A stretch of DNA of 64,000 bases from Bacteroidota bacterium (GTDB taxonomy: Bacteria > Bacteroidota > Bacteroidia > Palsa-965). Below are positions 8,436-63,874 of this stretch, one piece after another; within the stretch, counting starts at the first letter, position 1, and each line of letters begins with the position of its first letter. The stretch spans positions 1 to 64,000 of the forward strand of contig VBWE01000022.1 of the NCBI GenBank assembly GCA_006218065.1, written 5' to 3'. Both the position numbers and the translations under genes were made by a program. The notes under the pieces are model-generated. The model saw only the letters and a list, made by a program, of their open reading frames with translations, did no database searches and had not been told where the DNA came from.

Positions 8436-8578
8436 GGGAAGCGTTTTGGTCAAAGGAAAGAAAAGGAAACAGAAGCAGATTTCCCGGAGTCCGTTGATAA
8501 GTTTTAATCGACTCCGGCCGGGAAAGAACTGTATCTTTTTTCATGCTTTTCGTTATACAGGCGGCAAATACTGTACTC

Positions 8579-10627: not shown

Positions 10628-10671
10628 TGGAAAAAATTCCGGAGCCGGTTGACATGTCTTTTATAAATGCG

Positions 10672-10701
10672 GCAGGGGCGATCTTTTAGAATCGCCCCTG
10701 C
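10672..10701. repeat. GGGGCGAT hairpin between convergent genes
   Basis: Arms gcaggggcgat and atcgcccctgc pair perfectly around an eight-base loop. It sits between the stops of the M43 protease and the SPFH gene, which face each other. It may act as a bidirectional terminator, though no strong T-run follows. Same core as the hairpins at 2475 and 16585. Confidence 0.75.
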
Positions 10702-10721
10702 GGTAATGTTACAGGTTTTTT

Positions 10722-11663
10722 TTAATGCGGCTTATGCTTGTCGTCTATCAGTTTGTCCATCGACATCATCTGGCGCATGGTCTGCTGCATGCCTTCGGCC
10801 GATCCGTCGAGGAAAATCACGTTGCCTTTGGAATTTTCAGCGAAATGTTTGATGGCTTCCGTCCACATGGAAAAGAGGATTACCGAAGTATCGAGGTTGG
10901 CCTGCTGCATTTCCTTGGCGGCGCTGGTCATACCCTTGGCCACTTCTTCGCGGAAGAGCGCCACGCCCTGGCCGTGCAGTTGCGAAGCTTCCCGCTCGGC
11001 CGTTGCGGAGATTTTGATCGCGTTACCTTCGGCTTCGGCGGCTTTTGTTTTCGTGATCAGTAAGGCCTGTCCTTCGTTTTCGGCGGCGGCTTTGAGGTTG
11101 CTCGAAGCAACAACCTGCGCCATTGATTTCATAATTACATCATCGAACGTGATATCGTTCATCTGCGCATCGAGCAGGTGATAGCCCCATTCTTCGAGCA
11201 GGTGATCGAGCTGTTCTTTCAGGTGTTCGGTAATTTCACGGCGCAGGCTGAGTACTTCCGCCTGTTTGCGCGTAGCCACGTAGCCACGGATAACGCCTTC
11301 GATCGTGCGGATCAGCGCCTGCATGAAACTGCGCTCGTCCATAAATTTAAAGGCTACGTTCACCAGCGTTTTTTCCTGCTGGTCGATTACCGCGTAAAGC
11401 AGCATCGCTTTGAAATATACATTGGCCTGGTCGTTGGTGATGGCCTGGAATTCCAGTTCCACCGAACGGTTCTGGATAGAAATCCGCCTGTTCACTTTTT
11501 CGATCAGCGGAATTTTGAAATTCAGACCCGGGGTCATCATCCGGCGGTATTTCCCGAAAACAGTAGTCATGGCAACTGTTCCCTGCTGTACGGTTGCAAA
11601 ACATCCGAAGAAAAGTATCAGGCCGAAAAAGCCGAGGACGGAATAAATAATAATATCTGTCAT
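10722..11663 (-). CDS. SPFH/Band 7 membrane protein (stomatin/HflK-like)
   Basis: The 313-residue protein has one N-terminal membrane helix (residues 3-25) followed directly by the SPFH domain. Visible marks are GTVAMTTVFGKYRRMMTPGLNFKIP, RSVELEFQAITNDQANVYF and the ARxxAEV-like ATRKQAEVLSLRREI. A long helical, Ala/Glu-rich segment follows (AENEGQALLITKTKAAEAEGNAIKI and beyond), as in the flotillin/stomatin/HflKC group that forms oligomeric membrane rings. The C-terminus is a short His/Met-rich tail. No NfeD or protease partner is adjacent, so its specific role cannot be inferred. Confidence 0.88.
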   Translation of the reverse strand: MTDIIIYSVLGFFGLILFFGCFATVQQGTVAMTTVFGKYRRMMTPGLNFKIPLIEKVNRRISIQNRSVELEFQAITNDQANVYFKAMLLYAVIDQQEKTLVNVAFKFMDERSFMQALIRTIEGVIRGYVATRKQAEVLSLRREITEHLKEQLDHLLEEWGYHLLDAQMNDITFDDVIMKSMAQVVASSNLKAAAENEGQALLITKTKAAEAEGNAIKISATAEREASQLHGQGVALFREEVAKGMTSAAKEMQQANLDTSVILFSMWTEAIKHFAENSKGNVIFLDGSAEGMQQTMRQMMSMDKLIDDKHKPH

Positions 11664-11879
11664 ACGTGTAGGTGTTGTTTATGGGGTAAAAGTAGGGATG
11701 TAGGCGATGCATTGCAATACTCAGCCGAAAAAAGAACTTGGCGGATAAAGAATTACGGTAAATACCGCATTAGTCAAGGCACTCTGAAGAAGGAACGCTC
11801 AATGATCAACTCCCATCGGACAAATTCATTGATAATTGAGAGTTGGGTGTTTGGCGTTGTGCGTTTTTATTTCATCGCG

Positions 11880-13304
11880 CTAACTTACTTCATCCCGCTT
11901 CTCCAGCAGCACCACATTCTCCACGTGATGCGTATGCGGAAACATATCCACCGGCTGCACACGGGTTACTTTGTATGCGGCGTCAAGCAGGGCCAGGTCG
12001 CGGGCCTGGGAGGCGGGGTTGCAGCTTACGTACACCACTTTTTTCGCGCCGCTTGTTGCGATGCAGCGCACCACGTCTTCGTGCATACCCGCGCGCGGCG
12101 GATCGGTAATGATCACGTCGGGTGAACCATTTTCGGAAAGGAAAGCTGCGTTGAAAATATCTTTCATATCCGCCGCGAAGAATTTACAATTCGTGATCCC
12201 GTTCATCGCCGCGTTTTCACGGGCATCCGCAATCGCGGCTTCTACATATTCCACGCCGATTACTTTTTTCGCCTGCTTCGCCACGAACTGCGCGATGGTT
12301 CCCGTGCCGGTGTACAAATCGTAAACTGTTTCGCTGCCGGTAAGTCCTGCAAACTCGCGCGCTACTTTATAAAGCACGTAAGCCTGCGCGGAATTCGTCT
12401 GGTAAAACGATTTCGGCCCGACTTTGAAACGCAGGTCTTCCATCGCTTCGATGATATGATCGTTGCCGTGAAAAAGCTGAATGTCGAGATCGCCGATCGT
12501 ATCGTTCGCTTTCGGGTTGACCACATACATCAGCGAAGTGATCTGCGGAAATTTATCCCGCAGGGCCTGCAGCAGCAGTTGATGCGATTCCGGCTCATCG
12601 TCACAGAAAACCACCAGTACCATGATCCCGCCGGTGGAAGCGGTGCGGACGATCAGGTTACGCAGCAGGCCGGTTTTATTCCGGATATCGAAAAAAGAAA
12701 ATCCGTGCTCGTCCGAAAACGCTTTCACGAAAAGGCGGATACTGTCCGAAGGCTCCTCCTGCAAATGACAATGATTTACGTGCAGCACTTTATCGAACGT
12801 GCCGGGAATGTGAAAACCCAGCGCATTGCGGTTCTGCTGGTCGAAGGCCGCGCCGCTTTCCACTTCTTCGTTCGTCAGCCAGCGTTTATTGGAAAAACTG
12901 TAATCGAGGCGGTTGCGGTAATAATATACTTTTTCCGATCCGAGGATGGGCTGCAGCGGCGGCAGGGCGATTCCGCCGAGCCGTTCGAGCGAGTCGAGCA
13001 CCTGCTGCTGTTTGAAATGCAGTTGCCATTGGTAGCCGAGATGCTGCCACTTGCAGCCGCCGCAAACACCGAAATGTTCGCAGGCGGGTTTGGTCCGTTT
13101 GTCGGACTGATGATGAAAATGAATCGCTTTTCCTTCGGCGTAGCGTTTTTTCTTGCGCGTAACCTGGATATCCACGACATCGCCGGGAACGGCGTTCGAC
13201 ACGAAGACCACCATATTATCCACGCGGGCAATGGATTTTCCTTCGGCCACGGCGGATGCGATTTCTACATTTTCCAGGATCAGCGTCGTTCTCGGTTTTT
13301 TCAT
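11880..13304 (-). CDS. rlmD: 23S rRNA (uracil-C5)-methyltransferase, RlmD type
   Basis: The 474-residue protein begins with a TRAM domain (about residues 5-65, IQVTRKKKRYAEGKAI). A Cys cluster CEHFGVCGGCKWQHL follows, the 4Fe-4S ligand set of the RumA/RlmD family. The C-terminal Rossmann methyltransferase carries VYDLYTGTGTIAQF (SAM motif I), ITDPPRAGMHEDV and YVSCNPASQARDL, the last holding the nucleophilic Cys. The family methylates U1939 of 23S rRNA in Escherichia coli; the exact base here is inferred. A TACCTTTG promoter box ends only five bases before the ATG, so the message is probably leaderless or nearly so. Confidence 0.9.
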   Translation of the reverse strand: MKKPRTTLILENVEIASAVAEGKSIARVDNMVVFVSNAVPGDVVDIQVTRKKKRYAEGKAIHFHHQSDKRTKPACEHFGVCGGCKWQHLGYQWQLHFKQQQVLDSLERLGGIALPPLQPILGSEKVYYYRNRLDYSFSNKRWLTNEEVESGAAFDQQNRNALGFHIPGTFDKVLHVNHCHLQEEPSDSIRLFVKAFSDEHGFSFFDIRNKTGLLRNLIVRTASTGGIMVLVVFCDDEPESHQLLLQALRDKFPQITSLMYVVNPKANDTIGDLDIQLFHGNDHIIEAMEDLRFKVGPKSFYQTNSAQAYVLYKVAREFAGLTGSETVYDLYTGTGTIAQFVAKQAKKVIGVEYVEAAIADARENAAMNGITNCKFFAADMKDIFNAAFLSENGSPDVIITDPPRAGMHEDVVRCIATSGAKKVVYVSCNPASQARDLALLDAAYKVTRVQPVDMFPHTHHVENVVLLEKRDEVS

Positions 13305-51166: not shown

Positions 51167-51264
51167 CTATGGTTTATGGTTATTCTTTTGCTCATCGTCG
51201 CAGGATTTGGTTTCCGGAGCCTGGTCTGCATCCGCGCGGGGCTTTCTTTTTCCTATTTTTGATC

Positions 51265-52665
51265 GTGCTAAGAATAAAAGCCCTGAACGAGGATACGATC
51301 ATCGCACTGGCTACCGCGCATGGAACGGCTGCGATTGCCGTTGTCCGGCTTTCCGGTCCGAAAGCCATCGCACTTACCGAGCAGGTTTTCCGCGACAGCA
51401 AAGGCGAAGCCAAAACGCTGCAGGATAAGCCCTCGCACACCATTCATTTCGGCCTGATCAACCAGGGCGATGTGATCCTGGACGAAGTACTCGTCAGTCT
51501 TTTTAAAAATCCGCATTCCTATACCGGCGAAGATGTGGTGGAAATATCCTGCCACGGATCGACGTATATCCAGCAGCAACTGCTGCAGCTCTTCACGCAT
51601 CTCGGTGCGCGGCTGGCCGAGCCGGGTGAATTTACGTTCCGCGCATTTATGAACGGAAAGCTCGACCTGAGCCAGGCGGAAGCGGTGGCAGACCTGATCT
51701 CGTCCAATTCGGCCACTTCGCAGCAGGTAGCCATCCGGCAAATGCGCGGCGGTTTTTCGAATTCGATCAAAGTGCTGCGCGAACACCTGGTCAACTTCGC
51801 TTCGCTGATCGAACTGGAGCTCGATTTTTCCGAGGAGGACGTGGAATTCGCCAACCGTGACGATCTGAAGAAACTCCTCTACTCCATCCAGGCCATCCTG
51901 CAGCGCCTGATCGATTCGTTCGAACTGGGAAACGTGATCAAGAACGGCATTCCCGTGGCTATCGTCGGAAAACCGAATGCCGGGAAAAGCACGCTGCTCA
52001 ATGCTTTGCTGGAAGAAGACCGCGCCATCGTCAGTGAAATTCCCGGCACCACGCGCGATACGATCGAGGACGAAATCACGATCGACGGCGTATTATTCCG
52101 TTTCATCGACACGGCCGGCATCCGCAGTACCAGCGATGCGATCGAGAGCATCGGCGTGAGCAAAACCTTCGAGAAAATAAAACAGAGTGCGATCGTACTG
52201 TATCTTTTCGACGTGCACGAATTCACGCAGCGCGCGCTGAATGAGGCGCTGGACGAACTCCTGCCGCAGATCGGCGATACGCAGATGCTGCTCGTGGGCA
52301 ATAAGATCGATACGGAAGACCTGAATTATATCCAGCAGGAATTCCAGGATTACGATGTACTTTATATTTCCGCCAAGCAGAAACTGTTTATCGACGATCT
52401 GAAAACCAAACTGCTCAGCCTGTTCGACAGCCGCGCGATCAACATCACCGAAACGGTGGTCACCAACGCGCGCCACGCCGAAGCCCTGCGCCATACCAAC
52501 GGCGCGATCAACAAAGTGCTTGACGGTCTGAACCAGGGACTCACCGGCGATTTGCTGGCGGCTGATATCCGGCTCGCATTGGTTTACCTCGGTGAAATCA
52601 CCGGGGAAATCACGAATGATGATTTGCTGAAGAATATTTTCGGGAAGTTTTGTATCGGAAAGTAA
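51265..52665 (+). CDS. mnmE: tRNA modification GTPase MnmE
   Basis: 466 residues from a GTG at 51265. The frame is open back to an ATG at 51169, but that start adds 32 residues with no family match and sits against the clpC terminator. A CTG at 51283 before NEDTII is the point where the family begins. The N-terminal folate-binding domain reads NEDTIIALATAHGTAAIAVVRLSGPKAI. The inserted G domain has G1 GKPNAGKST, EIPGTTRDTIEDE and G4 NKID. The protein ends KFCIGK, with the catalytic Cys of the family C-terminal motif. With MnmG it modifies the wobble uridine of several tRNAs. Its last codons and stop lie inside the attachment core of the downstream island, which leaves the gene intact. Confidence 0.93.
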   Translation: MLRIKALNEDTIIALATAHGTAAIAVVRLSGPKAIALTEQVFRDSKGEAKTLQDKPSHTIHFGLINQGDVILDEVLVSLFKNPHSYTGEDVVEISCHGSTYIQQQLLQLFTHLGARLAEPGEFTFRAFMNGKLDLSQAEAVADLISSNSATSQQVAIRQMRGGFSNSIKVLREHLVNFASLIELELDFSEEDVEFANRDDLKKLLYSIQAILQRLIDSFELGNVIKNGIPVAIVGKPNAGKSTLLNALLEEDRAIVSEIPGTTRDTIEDEITIDGVLFRFIDTAGIRSTSDAIESIGVSKTFEKIKQSAIVLYLFDVHEFTQRALNEALDELLPQIGDTQMLLVGNKIDTEDLNYIQQEFQDYDVLYISAKQKLFIDDLKTKLLSLFDSRAINITETVVTNARHAEALRHTNGAINKVLDGLNQGLTGDLLAADIRLALVYLGEITGEITNDDLLKNIFGKFCIGK

Positions 52666-52667
52666 CC
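52651..52667 (+). other. attL: 17-bp direct repeat at the 3' end of mnmE
   Basis: tgtatcggaaagtaacc encodes the last codons (C-I-G-K-stop) of mnmE and is repeated exactly at 63858-63874. It marks the left junction of the integrated element. The base pairs left of it (cgggaagttt) belong to the host gene. Confidence 0.88.
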
Positions 52668-52900: not shown

Positions 52901-53494
52901 ATGAGTTCTAATATCAAGGTACAAAGAATCTGCCAGCATTGCGGCCAGGAATTCACAGCACGAACAACCGTTACCCAATACTGCGGGGACAGTTGCGCCA
53001 AAAAAGCCTACAAAGCCAGGCAGCGTTCGGCAAAAATTTCAACGAGCAACGACGAAACCAAACGCTTTGTTTCCGGGCCGATTGAAATAATAAAGACTAA
53101 AGAGTTCCTGACCGTTCGTGACGTTGCCACACTTTTAAATTGCTCGCTCCGTACCGCTTACCGTTTGATCGAAACCGGAAACATAAACGCGGTGAACCTG
53201 GCACAAAGAAAAACACTGGTAAGACGTTCGGACATTGATAAACTGTTTGAACCCTCCCGCCCTGTTTCAACTGCTCCCGATACAGAAAGCATACCCGAAA
53301 CGGTTAACTATGAAACTGCCAACTGTTATACTATCAGCGAAGCCATAACGCGGTGCGGTATTTCAGAAAGTGCATTTAGAAGTCTGCTAAACCGGCACAA
53401 TATCCCGAAGTTCCAAAAAGGACGTTCCGTATATGTTCCCAAAACCATTATTGAAAGTTTATTAATTAATCTGCAAAGCACACAAGGCAAATGA
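52901..53494 (+). CDS. Zinc-finger/double-HTH DNA-binding protein of the element
   Basis: 197 residues. The N-terminus has a small Cys cluster (Cys11, Cys14, Cys28, Cys32: RICQHCGQEF...YCGDSCAKKAY), probably binding zinc. Two excisionase/MerR-like helix-turn-helix units follow: FLTVRDVATLLNCSLRTAYRLIETG (from about residue 67) and YTISEAITRCGISESAFRSLLNRH (from about residue 145). The stop overlaps the integrase start by four bases (ATGA), so the two are translationally coupled. This suggests a recombination directionality factor or an integrase regulator. Such pairs are frequent at the ends of Bacteroidota integrative elements. Confidence 0.78.
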   Translation: MSSNIKVQRICQHCGQEFTARTTVTQYCGDSCAKKAYKARQRSAKISTSNDETKRFVSGPIEIIKTKEFLTVRDVATLLNCSLRTAYRLIETGNINAVNLAQRKTLVRRSDIDKLFEPSRPVSTAPDTESIPETVNYETANCYTISEAITRCGISESAFRSLLNRHNIPKFQKGRSVYVPKTIIESLLINLQSTQGK

Positions 53495-54633
53495 CGATCA
53501 AAGTAAAACTAAGGCAAAAGGCTATTTCGGGTAGCAGAAAAAGTTTGTACCTGGACTTTTACCCTCCTATTCCGCACCCGGAAACGGGCGAACCAACCCG
53601 CCGGGAGTTTTTAGGTTTTTATATCCTGGAGAAACCCAAAAATCCTATTGATAAGCAGCACAACAAAGAAACGATGCAACTGGCAGAGCAGATCAGACAG
53701 AAACGTGAGAACCATATTAATAAGCCGGAAATATATACCGGTTATGAAAAGGAACAACTGAAAATAAAAGAGCGTGGCGAAACAAATTTTGTTGAATACT
53801 TTAAAGCATTAGCCGACAAGCGCAAAGCCTCTAACCACGATAATTGGATTTCGGCTTTTAGTTACCTGAAGAACTTTACCGGCGGCGTACTGAAATTTGC
53901 CGACCTCAACGAAAAGTTTTGTAACGATTTTAAAGAATACCTGCTGACCACCAAAAGCAACAAAAGCAGCAAAACAATCCTTTCGCAAAATTCGGCGGTT
54001 TCGTATTTCAATAAAGTAAAAGCAGCCCTGAAACAAGCGTATAAGGACGGGTATTTACCGGATGACCTCAACAAAAAAGTTGAACCGGTAAAGACCGCCG
54101 AAACACAACGCAATTTCCTAACTATTGAGGAGTTAAACCAGCTTATTAAAACCGATTGCCAAAACCTGTTATTGAAAAATGCAGCCTTGTTTTCTGCCCT
54201 TACCGGATTACGTTTTTCAGATATTCAAAAGCTGGTTTGGGGTGAAATTGAATTTATTAAAGGACAGGGATATTATATTAAATACACACAACAGAAAACC
54301 AAAGGCGTTGAAATGCTGCCTATATCGGAACAGGCATATACCCTGCTGGGGGAACGAAAAGCCGCAACCGATAACGTATTTGCGGGGCTGACCTATTCGG
54401 CCTATTCCAATAAACACCTGTACCAGTGGATTGGGGCAGCGGGGATTTCAAAAGATATAACCTTTCATTGTTTCCGGCACACGTTCGCCACGTTGCAACT
54501 AAGCAACGGTACGGATATTTACACTGTTTCAAAAATGCTGGGACACCGGGAACTGAAAACTACACAGGTTTACGCTAAAGTAATTGACCAGACCAAGCGG
54601 GCGGCAGCAGATAAAATAAAGTTAGAATTTTAG
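53491..54633 (+). CDS. Tyrosine-type site-specific integrase
   Basis: 380 residues. It has an N-terminal arm-binding-like region (KVKLRQKAISGSRKSLYLDF), a SAM-like core-binding domain (about residues 95-200) and a catalytic domain. The domain's conserved set is Arg241 (ALTGLRFSDIQ), a Lys in the KTKGVEML strand, His326 and Arg329 (HCFRHTFATL), His352 (MLGHRELKTTQVY) and the nucleophile Tyr361. All catalytic residues are present, so the enzyme should be active. It is presumably responsible for integration at the mnmE core site. It is coupled to the preceding HTH protein gene. Confidence 0.95.
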   Translation: MTIKVKLRQKAISGSRKSLYLDFYPPIPHPETGEPTRREFLGFYILEKPKNPIDKQHNKETMQLAEQIRQKRENHINKPEIYTGYEKEQLKIKERGETNFVEYFKALADKRKASNHDNWISAFSYLKNFTGGVLKFADLNEKFCNDFKEYLLTTKSNKSSKTILSQNSAVSYFNKVKAALKQAYKDGYLPDDLNKKVEPVKTAETQRNFLTIEELNQLIKTDCQNLLLKNAALFSALTGLRFSDIQKLVWGEIEFIKGQGYYIKYTQQKTKGVEMLPISEQAYTLLGERKAATDNVFAGLTYSAYSNKHLYQWIGAAGISKDITFHCFRHTFATLQLSNGTDIYTVSKMLGHRELKTTQVYAKVIDQTKRAAADKIKLEF

Positions 54634-54661: not shown

Positions 54662-55678
54662 ATGACGGATAATATAGAATTACACCAGGAAAACATTTGG
54701 AGGTTTATTGATATATCAACCAGATGTTCTTTTAAATATTTTAAAGAAAACATTTCAAAGACTAATCCGTTTTCTCCACTACTTGCACCATTTGTTAATA
54801 ATGCAAGATTGTACTTTGAGCAGTTCAAACGTGAATTGGTTATACAATTATCAAAAGCAATAAACCCAGCCCCTATAGGCATAGATTTGCGCTCCCGGTT
54901 TTACCTAATGATTGACCGATACACAAATTGGTATAGTAAGAATATTGAAAATATTAACAGTTTAGGCCGCAACAATGTTTTTGAACTAATGCTGAATATT
55001 ATTGGTGATACAAAAGCAGAAATAGAAAAATATTTTCCTGAAAATACTTTATCCGAAAAAATATTCCCAATTAACATAAAGCAACAAAAAGAAGATTTAC
55101 AACAAATTTTCAGCGATGAGGAGAAACGCTATGCAAAAGACAAAAAACGAATTGTAGCAAAACTAAATACTATACTTGAACCAGAAAACAAAATCGCATT
55201 TCTAAAAAACGAACTGCGAGTATTTTATGAAGGATTGCAGCCTGTAACCACAGCAAGTTCGGGTGTTATACAACAGTTCCCCACGTTTCAAAATAAAAAA
55301 CTTTTTTTAGATCGTTTCATCGAAACTGAAATTCAGAAAATCGAAAACGGTGTAAATTCGTCTCCCGTTCAAAAGCCAGAACATTCACTTCGAGAGGTTG
55401 CATTATTTCTATTTTACAACGGCGAAAAGGTCGACAAAAAGAACGCCGATCAACTGGCAAAAAAATATAATCACAAATCTGGTCAGAAATTATATCAACT
55501 TTTTACTTTTTACTCCAGTAATAGTAACCGGATTCAGCCAGAGGAAACCAAAAAAAAAGCAGCAAACAAAATTGCTTTACTTAATAGGGTAATAACAATG
55601 CTTAACGGTGCTCCCCAAGCAAAGGCTAAAGACGAATTAAAAACAATGACCGCAAAGAATAAAGAGTATAGCCCATAA
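54662..55678 (+). CDS. Element-associated protein of unknown function
   Basis: 338 residues, AT-rich codon use, Lys/Asn/Ile-rich, soluble and mostly helical. The first 150 residues include ARLYFEQFKRELVIQLSKAI and FYLMIDRYTNWYSKNIENIN. The last 100 (SLREVALFLFYNGEKVDKKNADQLAKKYNH, GQKLYQLFTFYSS) are a region I have often seen in proteins next to integrases in Bacteroidota elements. No catalytic motif is visible. It starts 29 bases after the integrase stop and is followed by a long perfect palindrome. Confidence 0.6.
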   Translation: MTDNIELHQENIWRFIDISTRCSFKYFKENISKTNPFSPLLAPFVNNARLYFEQFKRELVIQLSKAINPAPIGIDLRSRFYLMIDRYTNWYSKNIENINSLGRNNVFELMLNIIGDTKAEIEKYFPENTLSEKIFPINIKQQKEDLQQIFSDEEKRYAKDKKRIVAKLNTILEPENKIAFLKNELRVFYEGLQPVTTASSGVIQQFPTFQNKKLFLDRFIETEIQKIENGVNSSPVQKPEHSLREVALFLFYNGEKVDKKNADQLAKKYNHKSGQKLYQLFTFYSSNSNRIQPEETKKKAANKIALLNRVITMLNGAPQAKAKDELKTMTAKNKEYSP

Positions 55679-55743: not shown

Positions 55744-56088
55744 ATGAACAATCCATTTGAAAACATTGATGCTCGGTTGAGTAACATCGAAAACCTGCTA
55801 CTTGACCTGAAACACAAAGCCCCGCAAAGCACTAAAAATTCCGAAAATGAGGAGTTAATGACCGTTCAGGATGCAGCGGCGTTTTTAAAACTATCCGTTC
55901 CGACTATTTACGGGCTTACACAACGGGCAGAAATACCCGTTTGTAAGCGCGGTAAACGGCTATACTTCTCAAAACAGGAACTTAGCGACTGGATTAAGGC
56001 AGGACGAAAAAAAACGTTAATAGAGTTAGAGCAGGAAGCGGAAACATGGTCAAACCCCAACCGTAAGCGAAGTAACCTTAAAAAATGA
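55744..56088 (+). CDS. Excisionase-like helix-turn-helix protein
   Basis: 114 residues from the ATG at 55744; a GTG at 55729 would add five. The N-terminal helix MNNPFENIDARLSNIENLLL is typical of this Bacteroidota family. The HTH is MTVQDAAAFLKLSVPTIYGLTQRAEIPVCKRGKRLYFSKQELSDWI, a MerR/excisionase winged helix in two stretches. A Lys/Glu-rich tail follows. The stop overlaps the next start (ATGA). It is a good candidate for excision or replication control in the element. Confidence 0.82.
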   Translation: MNNPFENIDARLSNIENLLLDLKHKAPQSTKNSENEELMTVQDAAAFLKLSVPTIYGLTQRAEIPVCKRGKRLYFSKQELSDWIKAGRKKTLIELEQEAETWSNPNRKRSNLKK

Positions 56089-56936
56089 TCGACTTTATCA
56101 AAGGTCGCATCATTAGCAACCCTGCACTGGCAGAAACTTTAAGAAACGGTATATGTGAGCGCGTCGATATTAACCACAAGACCGCCGAAACAGATACCGC
56201 GATTTTTCGCGGTAAAATCGGCGATTTTGAAATACTTGTTTATTCGTCGAACTTAATTCGCGTGAAAGGCAGCATACACAAATACTATGAAGGAGGAACA
56301 AATAGTTCCGACTTTACTTACTCCATGTTTCTGAAAACAGTTAACCGGTTTTGCGGAGAACTGGGAATAAAGCCTATAGACTTTCTATTAGAAAACGTCG
56401 AATTTGGTGTAAATATCCTCCTGCCTTATTCGGCTAAAATCATTTTGGATAATGTTGTTTGCCTTAAAACAGGTTTGCCATTCAGCCACCAGCAGGGCGG
56501 TGGATTGTGTTTTAAACGAAAAGAATACAGGCATAAACTGTACGACAAATCCGCACAGTACCAGTTAACGGGTTTCCTCCTCCGCTACGAAATTCACGCA
56601 GACAAAATGCGTTTAATTACCCCGGTGAAAACATTACACGATTTGACAATACCGGAAGTTTGGACTATGTTTCAACAGGAATTATGCAGGTACTTTCAAG
56701 AAATTATCTTTACTGACACATACACTCCGGAAAAACTAAAAAAATGGAATAAGAAGTATTACAAGCAATACGCCGACAAAATCAATAATTCGCGTTTCTG
56801 GAAAGGCTTGGCAGGTATTGACCGTTACCGCCACCATCTACGTTTAAAACGATTACAACAACAGGGAACGCATAATTTCAGTATTGAGATCGTTAAGTTG
56901 ATAGAGAAAAAGGCAGTAGAACTAAAAAGCAGGTAA
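56085..56936 (+). CDS. Probable phage/plasmid replication initiator (gpII/CRI-like Rep)
   Basis: 283 residues. The visible pattern VKGSIHKYYEGGTNSSDFTYSMF, then LENVEFGVNILLPY, then YRHKLYDKSAQYQLTGFLLRYEIH resembles the filamentous-phage gpII and CRI-type replication proteins. In those, a conserved KxYDK and a following Tyr/Arg-rich strand form part of the Rep catalytic fold. A nicking Tyr cannot be assigned with certainty; several lie near KKYYKQYADK. The gene is coupled to the upstream HTH gene. If this is right, the element can replicate after excision. The family call is from memory of motifs and should be read as probable. Confidence 0.55.
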   Translation: MIDFIKGRIISNPALAETLRNGICERVDINHKTAETDTAIFRGKIGDFEILVYSSNLIRVKGSIHKYYEGGTNSSDFTYSMFLKTVNRFCGELGIKPIDFLLENVEFGVNILLPYSAKIILDNVVCLKTGLPFSHQQGGGLCFKRKEYRHKLYDKSAQYQLTGFLLRYEIHADKMRLITPVKTLHDLTIPEVWTMFQQELCRYFQEIIFTDTYTPEKLKKWNKKYYKQYADKINNSRFWKGLAGIDRYRHHLRLKRLQQQGTHNFSIEIVKLIEKKAVELKSR

Positions 56937-57014: not shown

Positions 57015-57590
57015 ATGCCCCGACATTCTACCCTTCCCACGTTATTCGATGAATGTAAAACCGTTTCGATCAACGACCTCAAAAAATGGGGCTACCTGGT
57101 ACGGGGTAAAAACCCTGCGGGGGTTATCACCTGGAGGCGGCGCGGTGAAATTACAGCGCAGATCAGCATAGCGGTATTAATGGCAACCGCTGCTCCCTGT
57201 GTGGAGCTGGATTACAGGGTAAACGGAGAACCCCGCCAGATAACCGCAGAATTAACGGCTATACCCTCTAATTTAGGCCGGGGGCAGTTGTGGTACTTCA
57301 TCTGCCCGCACACCTCCAGGCGTTGCCGCAAACTGTACCTGGTTGACGGTTATTTCTATCACCGCTCTGCATTTAGGGGAGTGTTTTACAAACAGCAAAC
57401 ACTATCCGAAAAAAGCAGGGATTTGTATATTTTTTTTAGAGATACATGGTTGGCTGAAAACGGGTGCGACCAAGTGTACGAAAAGCATTTCCGCAAAAGC
57501 TATAAAGGAAAAATGACAAAACGTTACCGCCGGGTATTGCGGCAGATTAAACGGGGTGAAGATTTAAACAAGGAGGTATTATGTATGTAA
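57015..57590 (+). CDS. Element-associated protein with zinc-ribbon-like motif
   Basis: 191 residues. The core reads WYFICPHTSRRCRKLYLVDGYFYHRSAF, with CP...RC and nearby His residues that could bind zinc. I have met this phrase in short proteins of Bacteroidota mobile elements, but no function is assigned. The C-terminus is Arg/Lys-rich (KSYKGKMTKRYRRVLRQIKRG), fitting nucleic-acid binding. It follows the Rep-like gene after a 78-base AT-rich gap. That gap holds a small inverted cactt/aagtg pair but nothing clearly an origin. Confidence 0.55.
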   Translation: MPRHSTLPTLFDECKTVSINDLKKWGYLVRGKNPAGVITWRRRGEITAQISIAVLMATAAPCVELDYRVNGEPRQITAELTAIPSNLGRGQLWYFICPHTSRRCRKLYLVDGYFYHRSAFRGVFYKQQTLSEKSRDLYIFFRDTWLAENGCDQVYEKHFRKSYKGKMTKRYRRVLRQIKRGEDLNKEVLCM

Positions 57591-57599
57591 CATCTTCGA

Positions 57600-59039
57600 T
57601 TACCGGGACACGTATTGCACCCCCAGCGTCCTGCAAATAAACCATTCCTGGAACGGTATCAATTCCCCGCGTTCCGGGTTCCAGGCGGTTGCTCCCTGCT
57701 TTGCCCGCAGGTGTTCAATATGCGGCTGATGTTGCTGGTAAACGTGTTTAAAATCCAAATCAGAAACGATTACGGCCTGCATCAGATCAACGGCTAACTG
57801 TTCCCGCTCGTTCAGATGAACCGCAAGAGGGAATTTTTTATCCAGGGCAACCAGTTTCCGGATTATTGTTTTTTTCTCCTGCTTTGCTTCGCTTTCAATT
57901 ACCAGCATTTGCAGAAACAGCCGGGCAGCGGTTCCGAAGTGTTCACGGTCTGCGGTTCTCCAGTTAATGTTCTCCATTGCTTCCAAAGCATCCGCATACA
58001 TACCCTGCTGATAAAGTACGAGGGCTTTGATATAAAACGTTTTCCCGTTAGGTTGCAGCGTTAATGCTTCGGTAATGGCCGCGGATGCAGGAACAGGTTT
58101 ATTTTCTGCGAAATACGCGCAGGCTTCTACCTCCAGCAAAGCCCGGCGTTTTTCCGTCTGCTCGGCGTATAAGGGCAAACAGTGCTGTATTGTTTCAATC
58201 GTTTGCGGAAACCGCAGGAGGGCGAAATATAGCCCCGCTAATGCAAAGTAGGTTTCGCGTAGCTTGTTCCCGTCCTGCAAAGCCGGATGTTTTTCAATTA
58301 GCCGGATTTGTTTTTTCCTGCACTGCAAAACCTGTTCACGGTTCCCGCTTTTGGTTGCCGTGTGTGCTTCGGTTTCCAGCAGCAGAAACGCTGCCCGTGC
58401 CGATCCCTGTAAATGCTCCAGCGTTCGCAGGTCGGCTAAACGGCTTCGGGTTGTTTCCGGTTCATCCAACTGCGAAAGCAAATACAGTTCGTTGCACGTT
58501 ATTTCAAACTGCCACTGCCTTCGCGTTTGACGTAATTGATTTTCAAACCGCTGCTGCTGCTTCGGGGTAACCTGTGCCAGGTAGGTTAACGCTTGCAACT
58601 GTTCGGCGAAAAACTCAAACCGGGCAGCCTTTTCGCACGCCGCATACAGGCGGTATTCGGCAATGGCATACAGGCCACGTTCTAATAAAAATTCGGTTTG
58701 GTATAAACGGGTTCTTACTTCGGAAAGTGTTTTCCGGTGTTCGGAAAGTATTTCAATCCGTTTGGTATTTACGGGTAACGTTGCCGCCTGGATTACTTTA
58801 TCTTGCAACCGGATTACCAGCCGACTGAATGCAGCTACTTTGCGCCGACCATACAGCAGATATTCCAGGTCATGTTCTTTATAGGGTTGCGGTATGCTTA
58901 ACAGGTGCAGCAGTTTCAGGCTTTTGCTTTCAAACTTTTCGCCCCTGCTGTCAAAGGCTTTCAGGTAGTTTGTTACCAGGTGGAGTTCGTTACTGGTTAA
59001 CGTACTTACAAGCTGCTGGAGGCTTTTTATTCCGCTCAT
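57600..59039 (-). CDS. TPR-like protein of unknown function, antisense within the island
   Basis: 479 residues, the only island gene on the minus strand. It is helical throughout, with degenerate TPR-like pairs (RLYQTEFLLERGLYAIAEYRLYAACEKAARFEFF, KLRETYFALAGLYFALLRFPQTIETI). The N-terminus starts MSGIKSLQQLVSTLTSNELH. Similar lone helical proteins are common in Bacteroidota, but I know no function. Its codons are clearly GC-richer than those of its island neighbours, so it may be a later insertion or a cargo gene from another source. It has no signal peptide. Its own promoter must lie in the 284-base gap 59040-59323; CATCTTTG near 59075 on the minus strand is a near match to the consensus. 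Confidence 0.65.
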   Translation of the reverse strand: MSGIKSLQQLVSTLTSNELHLVTNYLKAFDSRGEKFESKSLKLLHLLSIPQPYKEHDLEYLLYGRRKVAAFSRLVIRLQDKVIQAATLPVNTKRIEILSEHRKTLSEVRTRLYQTEFLLERGLYAIAEYRLYAACEKAARFEFFAEQLQALTYLAQVTPKQQQRFENQLRQTRRQWQFEITCNELYLLSQLDEPETTRSRLADLRTLEHLQGSARAAFLLLETEAHTATKSGNREQVLQCRKKQIRLIEKHPALQDGNKLRETYFALAGLYFALLRFPQTIETIQHCLPLYAEQTEKRRALLEVEACAYFAENKPVPASAAITEALTLQPNGKTFYIKALVLYQQGMYADALEAMENINWRTADREHFGTAARLFLQMLVIESEAKQEKKTIIRKLVALDKKFPLAVHLNEREQLAVDLMQAVIVSDLDFKHVYQQHQPHIEHLRAKQGATAWNPERGELIPFQEWFICRTLGVQYVSR

Positions 59040-59323: not shown

Positions 59324-59938
59324 ATGAACGTAACACTGACAAAAACACAAAAAATATTAGTCCAAAGTTCCGGCGACATTGCCCGCATTATGCGGCAAAT
59401 ATTGCTCCGTGAAAACCGGATAAGCAGACAGCGCGAACACCTCTGGGCAGTTGGCCTGAACGCTGATTTCAGTATTCTGTATGTGGAATTAATTGCTTTC
59501 GGGATACCCGGCAAAGGCAAAATAAAGCCGATGGAAATTTACCGCCTGGCACTGCCAAAAGATGCAGCCTATATTTACCTGTGCCACAACCGGAAAACGG
59601 CTGACATGGCTGCACAGGCCGACGACAAGGCGTTAACCGACCGTATGATACAGGTAGGGAATATTGTAGGTATAACGTTTTTTGACCATGTAATAATTAA
59701 CGCAAAGACGGAAGACTATTTAAGTTTTCAGGACGTAGGGTTAATGGATGAACTGCGGAAAAGTACAGCCTGGGTTCCGAAGTTTGAGCAGATTAAGAAA
59801 ATTAGAGCAATGGCAAAACAAGAGGGAGAACTATCAAAAGCCCGCATCATTGCCAAAAACATGAAAAAGAAAAAACTGGATGTTGCGTTGATTTCGCAAC
59901 TGACAGGGTTAGCGGCTGATGAAATACGGAAACTCTAA
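59324..59938 (+). CDS. RadC-like JAB-domain protein with altered metal site and Rpn-like tail
   Basis: 204 residues. The RadC pattern is clear: REHLWAVGLNADFSILYVEL, MEIYRLALPKDAAYIYLCHNR, LTDRMIQVGNIVGITFFDHVIIN, YLSFQD. In active JAB proteins the motif is HxH-x7-SxxD. Here the spacing is kept, but it reads His88, Arg90, Gln98, Asp101, so one zinc ligand and the catalytic-site Ser are lost. The final 45 residues (KQEGELSKARIIAKNMKKKK, LDVALISQLTGLAADEIRKL) look like the C-terminal tail of Rpn/PD-(D/E)XK transposase-like nucleases. RadC-type proteins are frequent in mobile elements. This one is probably a binding protein rather than a protease. The gene is 39 bases upstream of the restriction-modification gene. 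Confidence 0.7.
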   Translation: MNVTLTKTQKILVQSSGDIARIMRQILLRENRISRQREHLWAVGLNADFSILYVELIAFGIPGKGKIKPMEIYRLALPKDAAYIYLCHNRKTADMAAQADDKALTDRMIQVGNIVGITFFDHVIINAKTEDYLSFQDVGLMDELRKSTAWVPKFEQIKKIRAMAKQEGELSKARIIAKNMKKKKLDVALISQLTGLAADEIRKL

Positions 59939-59977: not shown

Positions 59978-62917
59978 ATGATTACCAAAGAAACCGCCTA
60001 CAAAAAAATCGCTGAACTGGTTGAACGGTTTGAGGAGCAGTTTGCCTCTTACAAAAAATCGGAATACAACGAAACGTTAACCCGCCGTGATTTTATTGAT
60101 CCGTTTTTTAAAGCCCTGGGGTGGGATATTGACAACGAGCAGGGCTACGCCGAAGCATACCGCGAAGTAATACACGAGGACAGAATAAAAATAGGCGGGG
60201 CAACCAAAGCACCGGATTATTCCTTTCGGCTGGTTGGTGGTAAACGTTTGTTTTTTGTGGAGGCAAAAAAGCCCAGCGTTGCAGTAAAAGAGGAAATACA
60301 ACCGGCGTACCAGGTACGGCGTTATGGCTGGAGCGCAAAACTGCCGATAAGTATAATAACCGATTTTGAGGAGTTCGCAATTTACGACTGTACCAAAAAA
60401 CCAAAGCCGACCGATAAAGCTGCCGTTGCCCGGATTAAATACCTCACATTCCGCGAATACTTGCAGGAGTTTGAGTTTATCTGGAATACCTTTTCAAAAG
60501 AACGGGTTTTAAAAGGCAGCTTCGATACATTCGTACAAAGCGATACGCACAAAAAAGGAACGGCCACCGTTGACAAAGATTTTTTGCAATCGCTGGACAG
60601 TTGGAGAACACAGTTAGCGAAAGCAATAAGCAGCAGCAACAAAGACCTGGACGAGGACGAAATAAATTTTGCCGTTCAGCAGCTTATTGACCGGATTATA
60701 TTTTTACGCATTGCCGAAGATCGCAGCGTTGAGCCTTACGGCAATATGCAGGGCGCGTTAAAAAGCGGTGATTATTACCATAACCTGTTTGACCTGTTCC
60801 GCGAAGCCGACGAGAAATACAATTCCGGCCTGTTTGATTTCAAAAAAGATCAGATCAGCAAACACCTGAAAATTGATAACAAGATTATTAAAAACGTTAT
60901 CAATGAACTGTATTACCCGGAAAGCCCCTACGAATTTTCGGTTTTATCGGTTGAAATTCTGGGCAGTGCTTACGAACAATTCCTGGGCAAACAGATTAAA
61001 ATAGATAAGGCACACCATGTAAAAATTGAGGAGAAACCCGAAGTACGAAAAGCAGGAGGAGTTTATTATACTCCGCAATACGTAGTTGATTATATTGTTA
61101 AAAACACCGTTGGTAAACTGATTGAAGGCAAAACGCCAAAAGACATCAGCAAAATAAAAATAGTTGATCCATCCTGCGGCAGTGGCAGTTTTTTGATCGG
61201 GGCTTACCAGTATTTGTTAGACTGGCATAAAGACTATTACAGCAACAAGGGCAAACCCGTCAAAGGCAAAAAAGACAACCCGCTAACACCGGACGGCAAC
61301 CTGACCACCGGCGAAAAAAAGCGCATACTGCTGAATAATATTTTCGGCGTTGATATTGACGTTAACGCGGTGGAAGTTACCAAACTCTCGCTTCTGCTCA
61401 AATGTATGGAGGGCGAAACCAGTGCCTCAATAAACAACCAGCTAAAGTTTTTCAACGAACGGGTATTACCTACCCTGGACGAGAATATTAAAAGCGGAAA
61501 CAGCTTAATAGATACTGACTTTTACGAAACCCAACTGGATTTTGGAGAGGAGAAAAACATTAAACCGTTTAACTGGCAGAAAGGGTTTCCAACGGTATTT
61601 CAGGAAGGAGGGTTTAATATAATTTTAGGTAACCCTCCTTGGGGAGCAAATTTGAGTAATGATTCTATTATTTACTTAAAGAAAAAGCACCATTCTATTA
61701 TTGTTAGAATGATTGATTCCTATATGTATTTCATTAATCACTCAATAAACATTTTGAACAAAGAAGGTTATTTGGGCATGATTATACCAAGCACATTTCT
61801 TAATCAGGTTGACATGAAACTATTAAGAAAAAAAATAATCGAAACCAGTAACATAAATTCGGTAATTAATCTTGGTGAAAAAATATTTGGTTCAAAAGTC
61901 TTAAACACTTCAACTATTCTCATTTTTCAAAACACAAAAAAATCGGATAACAAAATATTGTTAGGTGATATTAGAAACATAAATCTTGAAGAGAAAGCAA
62001 AGCATTTAAACGAACTAAATGCTTCAAATAAAAAGGAATGGATAGATTTAGTTAAGACGGATGAACAAACAACTTTTTTTACCTTTAGTACATTAAACGT
62101 ATCACTTTTATCTAAGTTAAGATCGAAACATCCTAAGTTCAAAGACATTTTAGATGGTGAGGTACAAAGAGGGGTTAGCCCTGACTATGCAAAAGCTGTC
62201 ATACTAACAAAAGATGAAGCAAAAACAAAAAAAATAGAAACCTCAATACTCAAGCCTTTAGTATTAGGAAAGCATATCACAAGATACACTAAGCCCAATT
62301 CTGACGTATTACTCATTTACTTAACCTCAAAGGATGATTTAGAAAATTACACGAATGCAAAAAAGCACTTATTACAGTATAAAAAATTTATTACTTGTAG
62401 AGAAGTTGCCGAAGGAAAACATAAGTGGTATTCATTACATAGACCACGAAACCCCGACATTTTCAAGAAAAATAAATTCATTGGGCTTACTACAACCAAA
62501 AAACTTTGTTTGATATATGACGAATTTGGTTATTACACCACCGATGCGCTTTATGTTTTTAATGTAAAAAAAGGTGTTCATGAGAATAGTGTTTTAGCTG
62601 TTTTCAACTCTAAAGCATTTCAGTTTTTATATGAAACAGCAATTCAAGGAGGACAAAGGGTTATACCACAGGTAAAAGCTGCAAACCTTTATGAGTTGCC
62701 ATTTCCAAATGCTACCAAAAAAAATTTAGATTTAGAGAAATTAACAGAACAGCTTTTGGAATTAAATCAAAGGAATAAGGAAATAAAACTCGACAGCAAA
62801 CGGCAAGAAATAAAAAGTAAAATTGACTACTGCGAAAGCCGTATAAACGAGATCGTGTATCAGTTATACGAACTTACCCCGGATGAAATAAAGATCGTTG
62901 AGGAGGCCAGCAAATAA
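59978..62917 (+). CDS. Single-chain type IIG restriction-modification enzyme
   Basis: 979 residues combining three parts. At the N-terminus a PD-(D/E)XK nuclease shows Pro79-Asp80 and Glu95-Ala96-Lys97 (APDYSFRLVGGKRLFFVEAK). An N6-adenine methyltransferase follows, with SAM motif I VDPSCGSGSFLIGA near residue 395, KILLNNIFGVDIDVNAVEVTKLSL-type motif II text in two stretches, and motif IV NPPWGANLS near residue 552. The C-terminal half is a TaqI/Eco57I-type target-recognition region ending in a helical segment (LTEQLLELNQRNKEIKLDSK). One polypeptide thus cuts and methylates. Codon use becomes markedly AT-richer from about base 61600 on, within the recognition region, suggesting that part was exchanged. 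No partner S or R subunit is present. Confidence 0.9.
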   Translation: MITKETAYKKIAELVERFEEQFASYKKSEYNETLTRRDFIDPFFKALGWDIDNEQGYAEAYREVIHEDRIKIGGATKAPDYSFRLVGGKRLFFVEAKKPSVAVKEEIQPAYQVRRYGWSAKLPISIITDFEEFAIYDCTKKPKPTDKAAVARIKYLTFREYLQEFEFIWNTFSKERVLKGSFDTFVQSDTHKKGTATVDKDFLQSLDSWRTQLAKAISSSNKDLDEDEINFAVQQLIDRIIFLRIAEDRSVEPYGNMQGALKSGDYYHNLFDLFREADEKYNSGLFDFKKDQISKHLKIDNKIIKNVINELYYPESPYEFSVLSVEILGSAYEQFLGKQIKIDKAHHVKIEEKPEVRKAGGVYYTPQYVVDYIVKNTVGKLIEGKTPKDISKIKIVDPSCGSGSFLIGAYQYLLDWHKDYYSNKGKPVKGKKDNPLTPDGNLTTGEKKRILLNNIFGVDIDVNAVEVTKLSLLLKCMEGETSASINNQLKFFNERVLPTLDENIKSGNSLIDTDFYETQLDFGEEKNIKPFNWQKGFPTVFQEGGFNIILGNPPWGANLSNDSIIYLKKKHHSIIVRMIDSYMYFINHSINILNKEGYLGMIIPSTFLNQVDMKLLRKKIIETSNINSVINLGEKIFGSKVLNTSTILIFQNTKKSDNKILLGDIRNINLEEKAKHLNELNASNKKEWIDLVKTDEQTTFFTFSTLNVSLLSKLRSKHPKFKDILDGEVQRGVSPDYAKAVILTKDEAKTKKIETSILKPLVLGKHITRYTKPNSDVLLIYLTSKDDLENYTNAKKHLLQYKKFITCREVAEGKHKWYSLHRPRNPDIFKKNKFIGLTTTKKLCLIYDEFGYYTTDALYVFNVKKGVHENSVLAVFNSKAFQFLYETAIQGGQRVIPQVKAANLYELPFPNATKKNLDLEKLTEQLLELNQRNKEIKLDSKRQEIKSKIDYCESRINEIVYQLYELTPDEIKIVEEASK

Positions 62918-62949
62918 GCGGAGGGTAACCTATTTACAACAGTTAGAAA

Positions 62950-63732
62950 TTGAGCAACGATTTTAAAAACCCGTATGCCGAATTAGGCCGTGCTGATTCC
63001 GCTAATTATATTACTCCTGACGAGGCCGTTATATTGCGCGATGGAGGGCGTAAAGATTTTTACTGCCCGGATAGCGACTGCCGCGACCCTTACAGGAGGT
63101 TATCACTTGTTGAGCAGAAACATAAAAGACCATTTTTCAGACATTACCACGGCTACGATCACAACAGCAACCCGGAAACCCTGCTGCACAAATTAGCCGT
63201 TAAATGGTTTGCAGACAAAACAGCCTTTGAAATACCATCACACGAAAGCGAAGGTAAAGCACTAAAGCAGCAGACGGTTCAATTAGATGCGGCTAAAACC
63301 CGATTAGAGTACAACATTGCAAACACAATAAGGCCGGATGTTATGCTGCACACGGAAAGCGGTTTTACGTTCGCCGTTGAAATCGTTGTTACAAGTGACG
63401 TACACAGTGCCAAAGCGAAGAAAATAGAACTGTTCAATTTACCCACGTTGCGAATTGATTTTAGCCGCTTTTATCTGTACAACCGGGAACGATGCCAAAC
63501 AGATAAACAGTTTATCGAAAGCAGTTTAAACCGGTTGCTTGCTGATATAAACCTGAAAAGCTGGGTAAAGCCTCCCGCCTGGGATAAACTGCCCGCTGAA
63601 ATAGAGGTAATACAAATAACAGAACCGGCAAATGAACCCGCAACCACACACACACCACAAAATGAAAACACCGGCTGCTTTGTTATCCTGCCGCTTATTG
63701 GAGCAGGGTATTTGCTTTATACGCTGCTGTGA
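62950..63732 (+). CDS. CoiA-like putative nuclease with C-terminal membrane helix
   Basis: 260 residues, starting with a TTG (MSNDFKNPYAELGR); no ATG or GTG fits. The N-terminal part has a possible zinc site (Cys39, Cys44, His65, His67: FYCPDSDC...FFRHYHG). ETLLHKLAVKWFAD follows. Then comes a strand pair RPDVML (Asp130) and FAVEIVVTSD (Glu144), matching the PD-(D/E)XK-like core of CoiA-type proteins with the usual Lys replaced. The last 18 residues (CFVILPLIGAGYLLYTLL) form a membrane helix after a Pro/Thr linker. It starts 32 bases after the restriction-modification gene and is probably its partner in one transcript. CoiA itself acts in DNA uptake; membrane attachment is not usual for it. 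The nuclease call is inference. Confidence 0.6.
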   Translation: MSNDFKNPYAELGRADSANYITPDEAVILRDGGRKDFYCPDSDCRDPYRRLSLVEQKHKRPFFRHYHGYDHNSNPETLLHKLAVKWFADKTAFEIPSHESEGKALKQQTVQLDAAKTRLEYNIANTIRPDVMLHTESGFTFAVEIVVTSDVHSAKAKKIELFNLPTLRIDFSRFYLYNRERCQTDKQFIESSLNRLLADINLKSWVKPPAWDKLPAEIEVIQITEPANEPATTHTPQNENTGCFVILPLIGAGYLLYTLL

Positions 63733-63847: not shown

Positions 63848-63874
63848 GGTTACTTTCTGTATCGGAAAGTAACC
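63848..63874 (+). other. attR: tyrosine-recombinase core site with perfect inverted arms
   Basis: ggttactttc (63848-63857), spacer tgtatcg (63858-63864), gaaagtaacc (63865-63874). The arms are perfect inverse copies and the 7-bp spacer fits the overlap length of tyrosine recombinases. The spacer and right arm together are the 17-bp repeat shared with attL. The sequence after 63874 to the window end is host DNA with no identifiable gene in the 126 bases seen. Confidence 0.88.

What the first reader, a model, noticed from the sequence alone, without database searches (positions are those of the whole stretch)
59978..63732. Type IIG restriction-modification enzyme paired with a membrane-anchored CoiA-like nuclease
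The two genes are 32 bases apart at the cargo end of the island. CoiA-like proteins are tied to incoming single-stranded DNA, and the added C-terminal membrane helix would place this one at the DNA entry point. A modification enzyme plus a membrane nuclease could be a two-step defence against phage or plasmid entry that has not been described.
Basis: partly seen in the sequence, partly recalled or inferred. Interest (0 to 1): 0.72.

Follow-up and report, generated by a model that had tools for sequence, protein, structure and literature searches.

The report
Membrane-anchored CoiA-like nuclease beside restriction enzyme
At one end of a small mobile island a standard all-in-one restriction-modification enzyme is followed by a small DNA-cutting-enzyme-like protein with a membrane tail; the two are probably separate pieces of anti-invader cargo and not one fixed system, and the membrane-tailed protein is the less familiar part.

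Summary
59978-62917 encodes an intact Type IIG restriction-modification enzyme, and 62950-63732 starts 32 bases later. Both lie at the integrase-distal end of an 11.2-kb island in the 3' end of mnmE, bounded by a 17-bp direct repeat (52651-52667, 63858-63874).

The second protein matches no Pfam, NCBIfam, PADLOC or PHROG model. Profiles place it in a divergent CoiA-like clade found in bacterial genomes, phage contigs and a plasmid. A 9-sequence AlphaFold model (pLDDT 78) gives a restriction-endonuclease-like core with invariant D130, E144 and K155: a D-E-K site whose lysine sits on the helix, not CoiA's EXQ. Two relatives from other families share the C-terminal membrane helix, so it is a recurring feature.

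The proposed pairing is weak. About 80 other loci with this IIG family carry varied genes downstream and none an intact CoiA-like gene; both other membrane-tailed proteins lack an IIG nearby. One relative keeps an apparent 36-codon stub of the gene behind its IIG at the same mnmE site, and one unrelated IIG/CoiA-like adjacency exists.

Most likely these are two independent defence cargo genes, one a membrane-tethered nuclease working somewhat like SNIPE. No activity was tested.

The parts
51169..52665 (+). mnmE (trmE); its 3' end is the island's insertion site
   Evidence: Pfam TrmE_N / MnmE_helical; orthologues in 9 genomes of the family
52651..52667 (+). left attachment repeat TGTATCGGAAAGTAACC, overlapping the mnmE stop codon
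   Evidence: 17/17 match to 63858-63874
63858..63874 (+). right attachment repeat, end of the island
53491..54633 (+). tyrosine integrase of the island
   Evidence: Pfam Phage_integrase 5.5e-22, SAM-like and arm-binding domains
52901..53494 (+). helix-turn-helix / excisionase-like gene
   Evidence: HTH_17, TIGR01764
59324..59938 (+). RadC-type JAB-domain gene, common in mobile elements
   Evidence: PF04002 5.6e-20
59978..62917 (+). Type IIG restriction-modification enzyme (N-terminal PD-(D/E)XK, N6-adenine MTase, C-terminal TRD)
   Evidence: PADLOC REase_MTase_IIG 8.7e-194; HSDR_N, Eco57I, TaqI_C; motifs PDYSF at residue 79, FVEAKKP 93, DPSCGSGSF 397, GNPPW 551
62950..63732 (+). CoiA-like, membrane-anchored predicted nuclease, 260 aa
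   Evidence: profile relatives; model m353e89eef27a pLDDT 77.9, pTM 0.75; structural matches to PD-(D/E)XK nucleases
63337..63339 (+). D130 codon (PD motif), invariant
   Evidence: invariant in the 9-sequence alignment A9
63379..63381 (+). E144 codon, invariant
63412..63414 (+). K155 codon, invariant, on the helix after the strand that carries E144
   Evidence: equated with the swapped Lys of COG4636 (PMC1189080) by inference
63676..63729 (+). C-terminal membrane helix, residues 243-260
   Evidence: hydropathy; same feature in L175 and L176

Best explanation
An integrase-borne island in the 3' end of mnmE carries two anti-invader genes at its distal end. The first is an ordinary Type IIG enzyme that methylates host DNA and cuts unmethylated incoming DNA. 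The second is a stand-alone CoiA-like PD-(D/E)XK nuclease: a Cys/His N-terminal region, a nuclease core with a D130-E144-K155 site whose lysine is supplied from the helix, and a C-terminal helix that holds it in the inner membrane with the nuclease in the cytoplasm. There it most likely degrades foreign DNA near its point of entry, as SNIPE does with a different nuclease. The two probably travel together as defence cargo, perhaps co-transcribed, and need not act on each other. Shown: gene order, island ends, IIG domain make-up, CoiA-like kinship by profile, predicted nuclease fold, invariant residues, recurrence of the membrane helix. Inferred: catalysis, membrane topology, defence role, action at entry, co-transcription.
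For: Island ends: 17-bp direct repeat. IIG: full-length match, motifs intact. CoiA-like core: iterative profile links it to PF06054 proteins and to bacterial, phage and plasmid relatives, several of which match Pfam CoiA_N; F63, H65, H80, P129, D130, E144 and K155 are invariant in 9 diverse sequences; the model's core aligns mainly to PD-(D/E)XK nucleases (9y1l, 3hrl, Hjc, VRR_NUC, SfsA, DUF820, RecU; Z up to 6.0). Membrane helix in L175 and L176 and in none of 12 other CoiA-like proteins compared. Defence setting: G076's membrane-anchored copy follows a PADLOC candidate PDC-M16A; the long relative in G379 neighbours an IIG (PADLOC 2.8e-284) and an EVE/AAA gene; that in G499 lies near a IIG-type MTase and PDC-S68. 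A CoiA-domain system defends E. coli against phage (PMC9519451), and a membrane-bound nuclease cuts phage DNA during injection (PMC13190303).
Against: No family model matches the protein, and Foldseek E-values are weak (best 0.15 in PDB); VIA Z is at most 6, a range that can reflect only a common arrangement. The G605 copy sits between housekeeping genes. Phage-borne relatives sit beside replication-type ATPase genes, which suggests DNA processing as an alternative role. Topology of the tail is not established: basic residues follow the helix in L175 and L176.
Confidence: 0.5

Rival explanations
1. The two genes form one functional defence unit: IIG methylation marks self and the membrane nuclease attacks what the IIG exposes or nicks, or the IIG methylation protects the host from the CoiA-like nuclease.
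For: 32-nt gap on one strand. A same-family genome (G006) with a related IIG (60.6% overall, 76% over residues 1-670) at the same mnmE site has a 36-codon reading frame right after the IIG that matches the first 25 residues of the CoiA-like protein in register (score 56; 0 of 20,000 shuffles reach it, maximum 43; best of 990 other N-termini 31). A different IIG family lies 169 bp from a different CoiA-like gene in G379.
Against: No intact CoiA-like gene downstream of about 80 other IIG loci; the downstream gene differs almost everywhere. The two other membrane-anchored CoiA-like genes have no IIG within their fetched neighbourhoods. In G006 only the stub remains while the IIG is intact, so the IIG persists without it. 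In a blind search over all frames the stub is not significant (phmmer E 0.15).
Confidence: 0.15
2. The CoiA-like protein is a mobile-element DNA-processing protein (replication, recombination, establishment of the island, or handling of transforming DNA), not a defence effector.
For: CoiA is implicated in DNA uptake and recombination (PMC1189080). Relatives in phage contigs L152 and L201 lie directly after an AAA/replication-type ATPase gene, and one is on a small plasmid near its replication gene.
Against: The phage relatives lack the membrane helix. Several non-phage relatives lie in defence-type clusters. The island already has an integrase.
Confidence: 0.25
3. The gene is a degenerate or catalytically dead remnant kept by chance at the end of the island.
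For: Closest relatives share only about 23-29% identity, the classical CoiA glutamine is replaced by valine, the N-terminal Cys pair is spaced C-x4-C rather than C-x2-C, and a relative at the same site has apparently decayed to a stub.
Against: Open over 260 codons with D130, E144, K155, H65 and H80 all kept and an intact membrane helix; a hydrophobic residue at the Q position is usual in this clade.
Confidence: 0.1

Closest known systems
CoiA family (PF06054 / COG4469)
   Same: PD-(D/E)XK core, N-terminal Cys/His region followed by a conserved FxH and ETxxH-type helix; linked by iterative profile
   Different: No match to the Pfam model at its cut-off; active site lacks the Q of EXQ and instead has an invariant Lys on the following helix; added C-terminal membrane helix; sits on a mobile island
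CoiA-domain anti-phage system of Vassallo et al. 2022 (PMC9519451)
   Same: A CoiA domain in a validated E. coli phage-defence locus
SNIPE (PMC13190303)
   Same: Single membrane-anchored nuclease; would act on DNA at entry (function inferred here)
   Different: SNIPE has an N-terminal membrane region, DUF4041 and a GIY-YIG nuclease; this protein has none of these and carries its helix at the C-terminus
Type IIG restriction-modification enzymes
   Same: Nuclease, methyltransferase and specificity domain in one chain; full-length PADLOC match
   Different: Nothing unusual; the C-terminal specificity part differs from the nearest relative, as is usual
Salmonella genomic island 1 and relatives
   Same: Integrase-mediated insertion in the 3' end of trmE/mnmE (PMC8409611)
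   Different: Different bacteria and different gene content; no evidence of common descent

Membership tests
Type IIG restriction-modification | Endonuclease, N6-adenine methyltransferase and target-recognition domains in one polypeptide | tested here: met
   HSDR_N, Eco57I, TaqI_C; full-length REase_MTase_IIG; motifs PDY/EAK, DPSCGSG, NPPW
Type IIG restriction-modification | Methylation and cleavage of a defined site | not testable with these tools
   needs enzyme assay or methylome
CoiA family (PF06054/COG4469) | Match to the curated family model | tested here: not met
   no match in Pfam scan or in own-genome family search
CoiA family (PF06054/COG4469) | Kinship by profile to recognised CoiA proteins | tested here: met
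   iterative profile from window, L003, L004 and a plasmid 'CoiA family' protein recruits PF06054-found proteins; relatives match CoiA_N PF25164
CoiA family (PF06054/COG4469) | PD-EXQ active site (PMC1189080) | tested here: not met
   E144-I-V; Lys at 155 instead
CoiA family (PF06054/COG4469) | Role in natural transformation / competence regulon | not tested
   gene lies on an integrase-borne island; no competence genes were searched for
PD-(D/E)XK nuclease superfamily | alpha-beta-beta-beta-alpha-beta core with D, E and K/Q catalytic residues | tested here: met
   model m353e89eef27a strands 108-117, 131-135, 140-146, helix 153-161, strand 166-170; structural rows mostly PD-(D/E)XK proteins, best Z 6.0, rmsd 3.3, 92 aligned; D130, E144, K155 invariant. 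Matches are of middling strength
SNIPE | DUF4041 plus GIY-YIG nuclease | tested here: not met
   no Pfam match; core is PD-(D/E)XK-like
SNIPE | Membrane localisation through an N-terminal region | tested here: not met
   hydrophobic helix is C-terminal
Conserved two-gene IIG + CoiA-like system | Recurrent adjacency across genomes | tested here: not met
   none intact in about 80 other IIG loci; one apparent stub at the same site in G006; one unrelated adjacency in G379

The most novel reading that the evidence does not exclude
C-terminally membrane-anchored CoiA-like nucleases are an undescribed entry-point defence family that, like SNIPE, cuts phage or plasmid DNA as it crosses the inner membrane, and in this island works together with the co-encoded Type IIG enzyme.
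Probability: 0.12. Interest if true: 0.75.

Novelty: new variant of a known kind. Interest (0 to 1): 0.42.

Why it matters
CoiA proteins are known mainly from DNA uptake; a recurring membrane-tailed form on a mobile island, with a shifted catalytic lysine, suggests that this fold has been reused as a nuclease positioned at the membrane. That gives a simple, testable question: does it cut DNA during entry, as SNIPE does? The IIG partner is ordinary, and the claimed pairing is mostly a matter of shared cargo space.

Tried and rejected
Direct family searches of the 260-aa protein in Pfam, NCBIfam, PADLOC, PHROGs and the PDB sequences gave nothing. Single-sequence searches for relatives in genome contigs and viral contigs gave nothing, and none in phages; only alignment-based searches worked. 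A first structure model from 4 sequences was too poor to use (pLDDT 41.9); the 9-sequence core model replaced it. A conserved IIG/CoiA-like pair was tested in 93-102 IIG loci and rejected, apart from the G006 stub. An att-like repeat at the right end of the G006 segment was looked for; only partial matches were found. Promoter and terminator scans over the two genes gave no more promoters than shuffles (9 found, 9.4 expected) and were not used. Foldseek against PDB gave no match below E 0.1.

Full report
OBSERVATION. They are the last two genes of an island. A 17-bp direct repeat, TGTATCGGAAAGTAACC, occurs at 52651-52667, where it contains the stop codon of mnmE (51169-52665), and at 63858-63874. 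Between the repeats lie a helix-turn-helix gene, a tyrosine integrase (53491-54633), several unassigned genes, a RadC-type gene and the two genes of interest. So 'cargo end of the island' is right.

THE FIRST GENE is an ordinary Type IIG restriction-modification enzyme: full-length PADLOC match at 8.7e-194, Pfam HSDR_N, Eco57I methylase and TaqI_C specificity domain, intact PDY...EAK, DPSCGSG and NPPW motifs. Of 70 distinct long relatives gathered here, 66 keep the nuclease motif and all 70 the methylase motifs. Relatives are widespread in Bacteroidota and beyond.

THE SECOND GENE matches no model in Pfam, NCBIfam, PADLOC or PHROGs, and single-sequence searches barely reach two ~560-aa proteins in other families of the phylum and a Psychrobacter plasmid protein annotated as CoiA family. 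An alignment of these found closer relatives in the same class, and further alignments found relatives on phage contigs. Across nine sequences F63, H65, H80, P129, D130, E144 and K155 are invariant. Classical CoiA was described as PD-EXQ with a conserved Arg at the place of the swapped lysine of COG4636 nucleases (PMC1189080). Here the Q position is mostly hydrophobic (Val in this protein) and a lysine eleven residues after the Glu is invariant, so the likely site is D130-E144-K155 with the lysine on the helix. That reading is an inference from sequence and model.

STRUCTURE. With only four sequences the model was useless (pLDDT 41.9). With nine it reached pLDDT 77.9 and pTM 0.75 for residues 1-214, with D130 just before strand 131-135, E144 in strand 140-146 and K155 in helix 153-161. 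Foldseek against solved structures gave no significant match, but the structural realignment lists mostly PD-(D/E)XK proteins: putative restriction endonuclease 9y1l (Z 6.0, rmsd 3.3, 92 aligned), 3hrl, Hjc, VRR_NUC, SfsA, DUF820, RecU, Bax1. Z values are middling, so I rest the nuclease assignment on the agreement of fold list, invariant residues and CoiA kinship together.

MEMBRANE HELIX. Residues 243-260 form a strongly hydrophobic C-terminal segment. Among 15 CoiA-like proteins compared, the same feature occurs in two more, 208 aa in G076 (L175) and 214 aa in G605 (L176), which belong to other families of the same class; the other 12 lack it. It is therefore not an accident of this locus. 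Without a signal peptide the simplest topology is core in the cytoplasm; this was not tested.

IS THE PAIR CONSERVED? Largely no. In 93 IIG loci, 52 with at least 900 bases downstream, the following gene differs almost every time: TIR-like, ImmA/IrrE-like, reverse-transcriptase-like, methylase-like and transposase-like genes among others, read by eye from their sequences. A sensitive six-frame profile search of 86 downstream regions, five of them copies of this locus, found no other CoiA-like gene. The two other membrane-anchored CoiA-like genes have no IIG near them. Two facts point the other way. First, in G006, a same-family genome, a related IIG lies directly after mnmE and is followed by a 36-codon frame whose start matches the CoiA-like N-terminus in register (12 of 24 positions; score 56, never reached in 20,000 shuffles; best of 990 other N-termini 31). 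In an unbiased six-frame search this stub scores only E 0.15, so I treat it as probable, not certain. If right, the arrangement was once present at this site in a relative and the CoiA-like gene decayed while the IIG stayed. Of the other seven family genomes in which mnmE was found, none shows an IIG in the sequence fetched after it, though for two of them little sequence was available. Second, in G379 a different IIG (PADLOC 2.8e-284) lies 169 bp from a longer CoiA-like gene without a membrane helix. Such CoiA-like genes also occur near PADLOC defence candidates PDC-M16A (G076) and PDC-S68 (G499). This fits a general defence-cargo neighbourhood better than a fixed pair; I did not run a formal enrichment test.

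HOW IT MOST LIKELY WORKS. The IIG protects by methylation-guided cutting. The CoiA-like protein is probably a membrane-tethered nuclease that degrades incoming foreign DNA independently. Published precedents exist for each half of that idea: a CoiA-domain protein in one of 21 E. coli phage-defence loci (PMC9519451), and SNIPE, a membrane-bound nuclease that cuts phage DNA during injection (PMC13190303). It is not a SNIPE member: no DUF4041, no GIY-YIG domain, and the helix is at the other end.

NOVELTY. New variant of a known kind: a C-terminally membrane-anchored CoiA-like subfamily with a shifted catalytic lysine. The IIG is ordinary, the island site is a known kind (trmE/mnmE 3' end, as in SGI1, PMC8409611), and the proposed two-step system has little support.

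Noticed in passing
57600-59039 (-): Island gene of about 480 aa belongs to a multicopy family: six matches in the own genome and further copies (36-40% identity) in G006. No function assigned.
   Followed up: partly
52651-52667 and 63858-63874; 53277-53289: The attachment repeat lies in a near-palindrome CTTTCTGTATCGGAAAG at the right end, and a 13-bp inverted match occurs inside the island. The mnmE/trmE 3' end is also the SGI1 insertion site in Gammaproteobacteria.
   Followed up: partly
54662-55678, 56085-56936, 57015-57590: Three island genes without any family match at a meaningful score in Pfam or NCBIfam.
   Followed up: no
59324-59938: RadC-type protein carries only the C-terminal JAB domain, the form usual on mobile elements.
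   Followed up: no
L126 (G006) 8345-12600: Related IIG placed about 33 bp after mnmE without any integrase; identity to the window's IIG is 76% over residues 1-670 but 60.6% overall, so the specificity region has diverged.
   Followed up: yes
L124 4757-10445: CoiA-like gene (557 aa) and a DUF7149/DUF7814 Type IIG enzyme side by side on one strand, next to an EVE/AAA protein gene.
   Followed up: partly
L180 7763-9770: A CoiA-like gene with an internal stop lies 305 bp from a cytosine-5 DNA methyltransferase gene.
   Followed up: no
L152 4793-6642, L201 3332-6032: Phage-contig CoiA-like genes overlap or directly follow an AAA/replication-type ATPase gene, suggesting a DNA-processing role in phages.
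   Followed up: no
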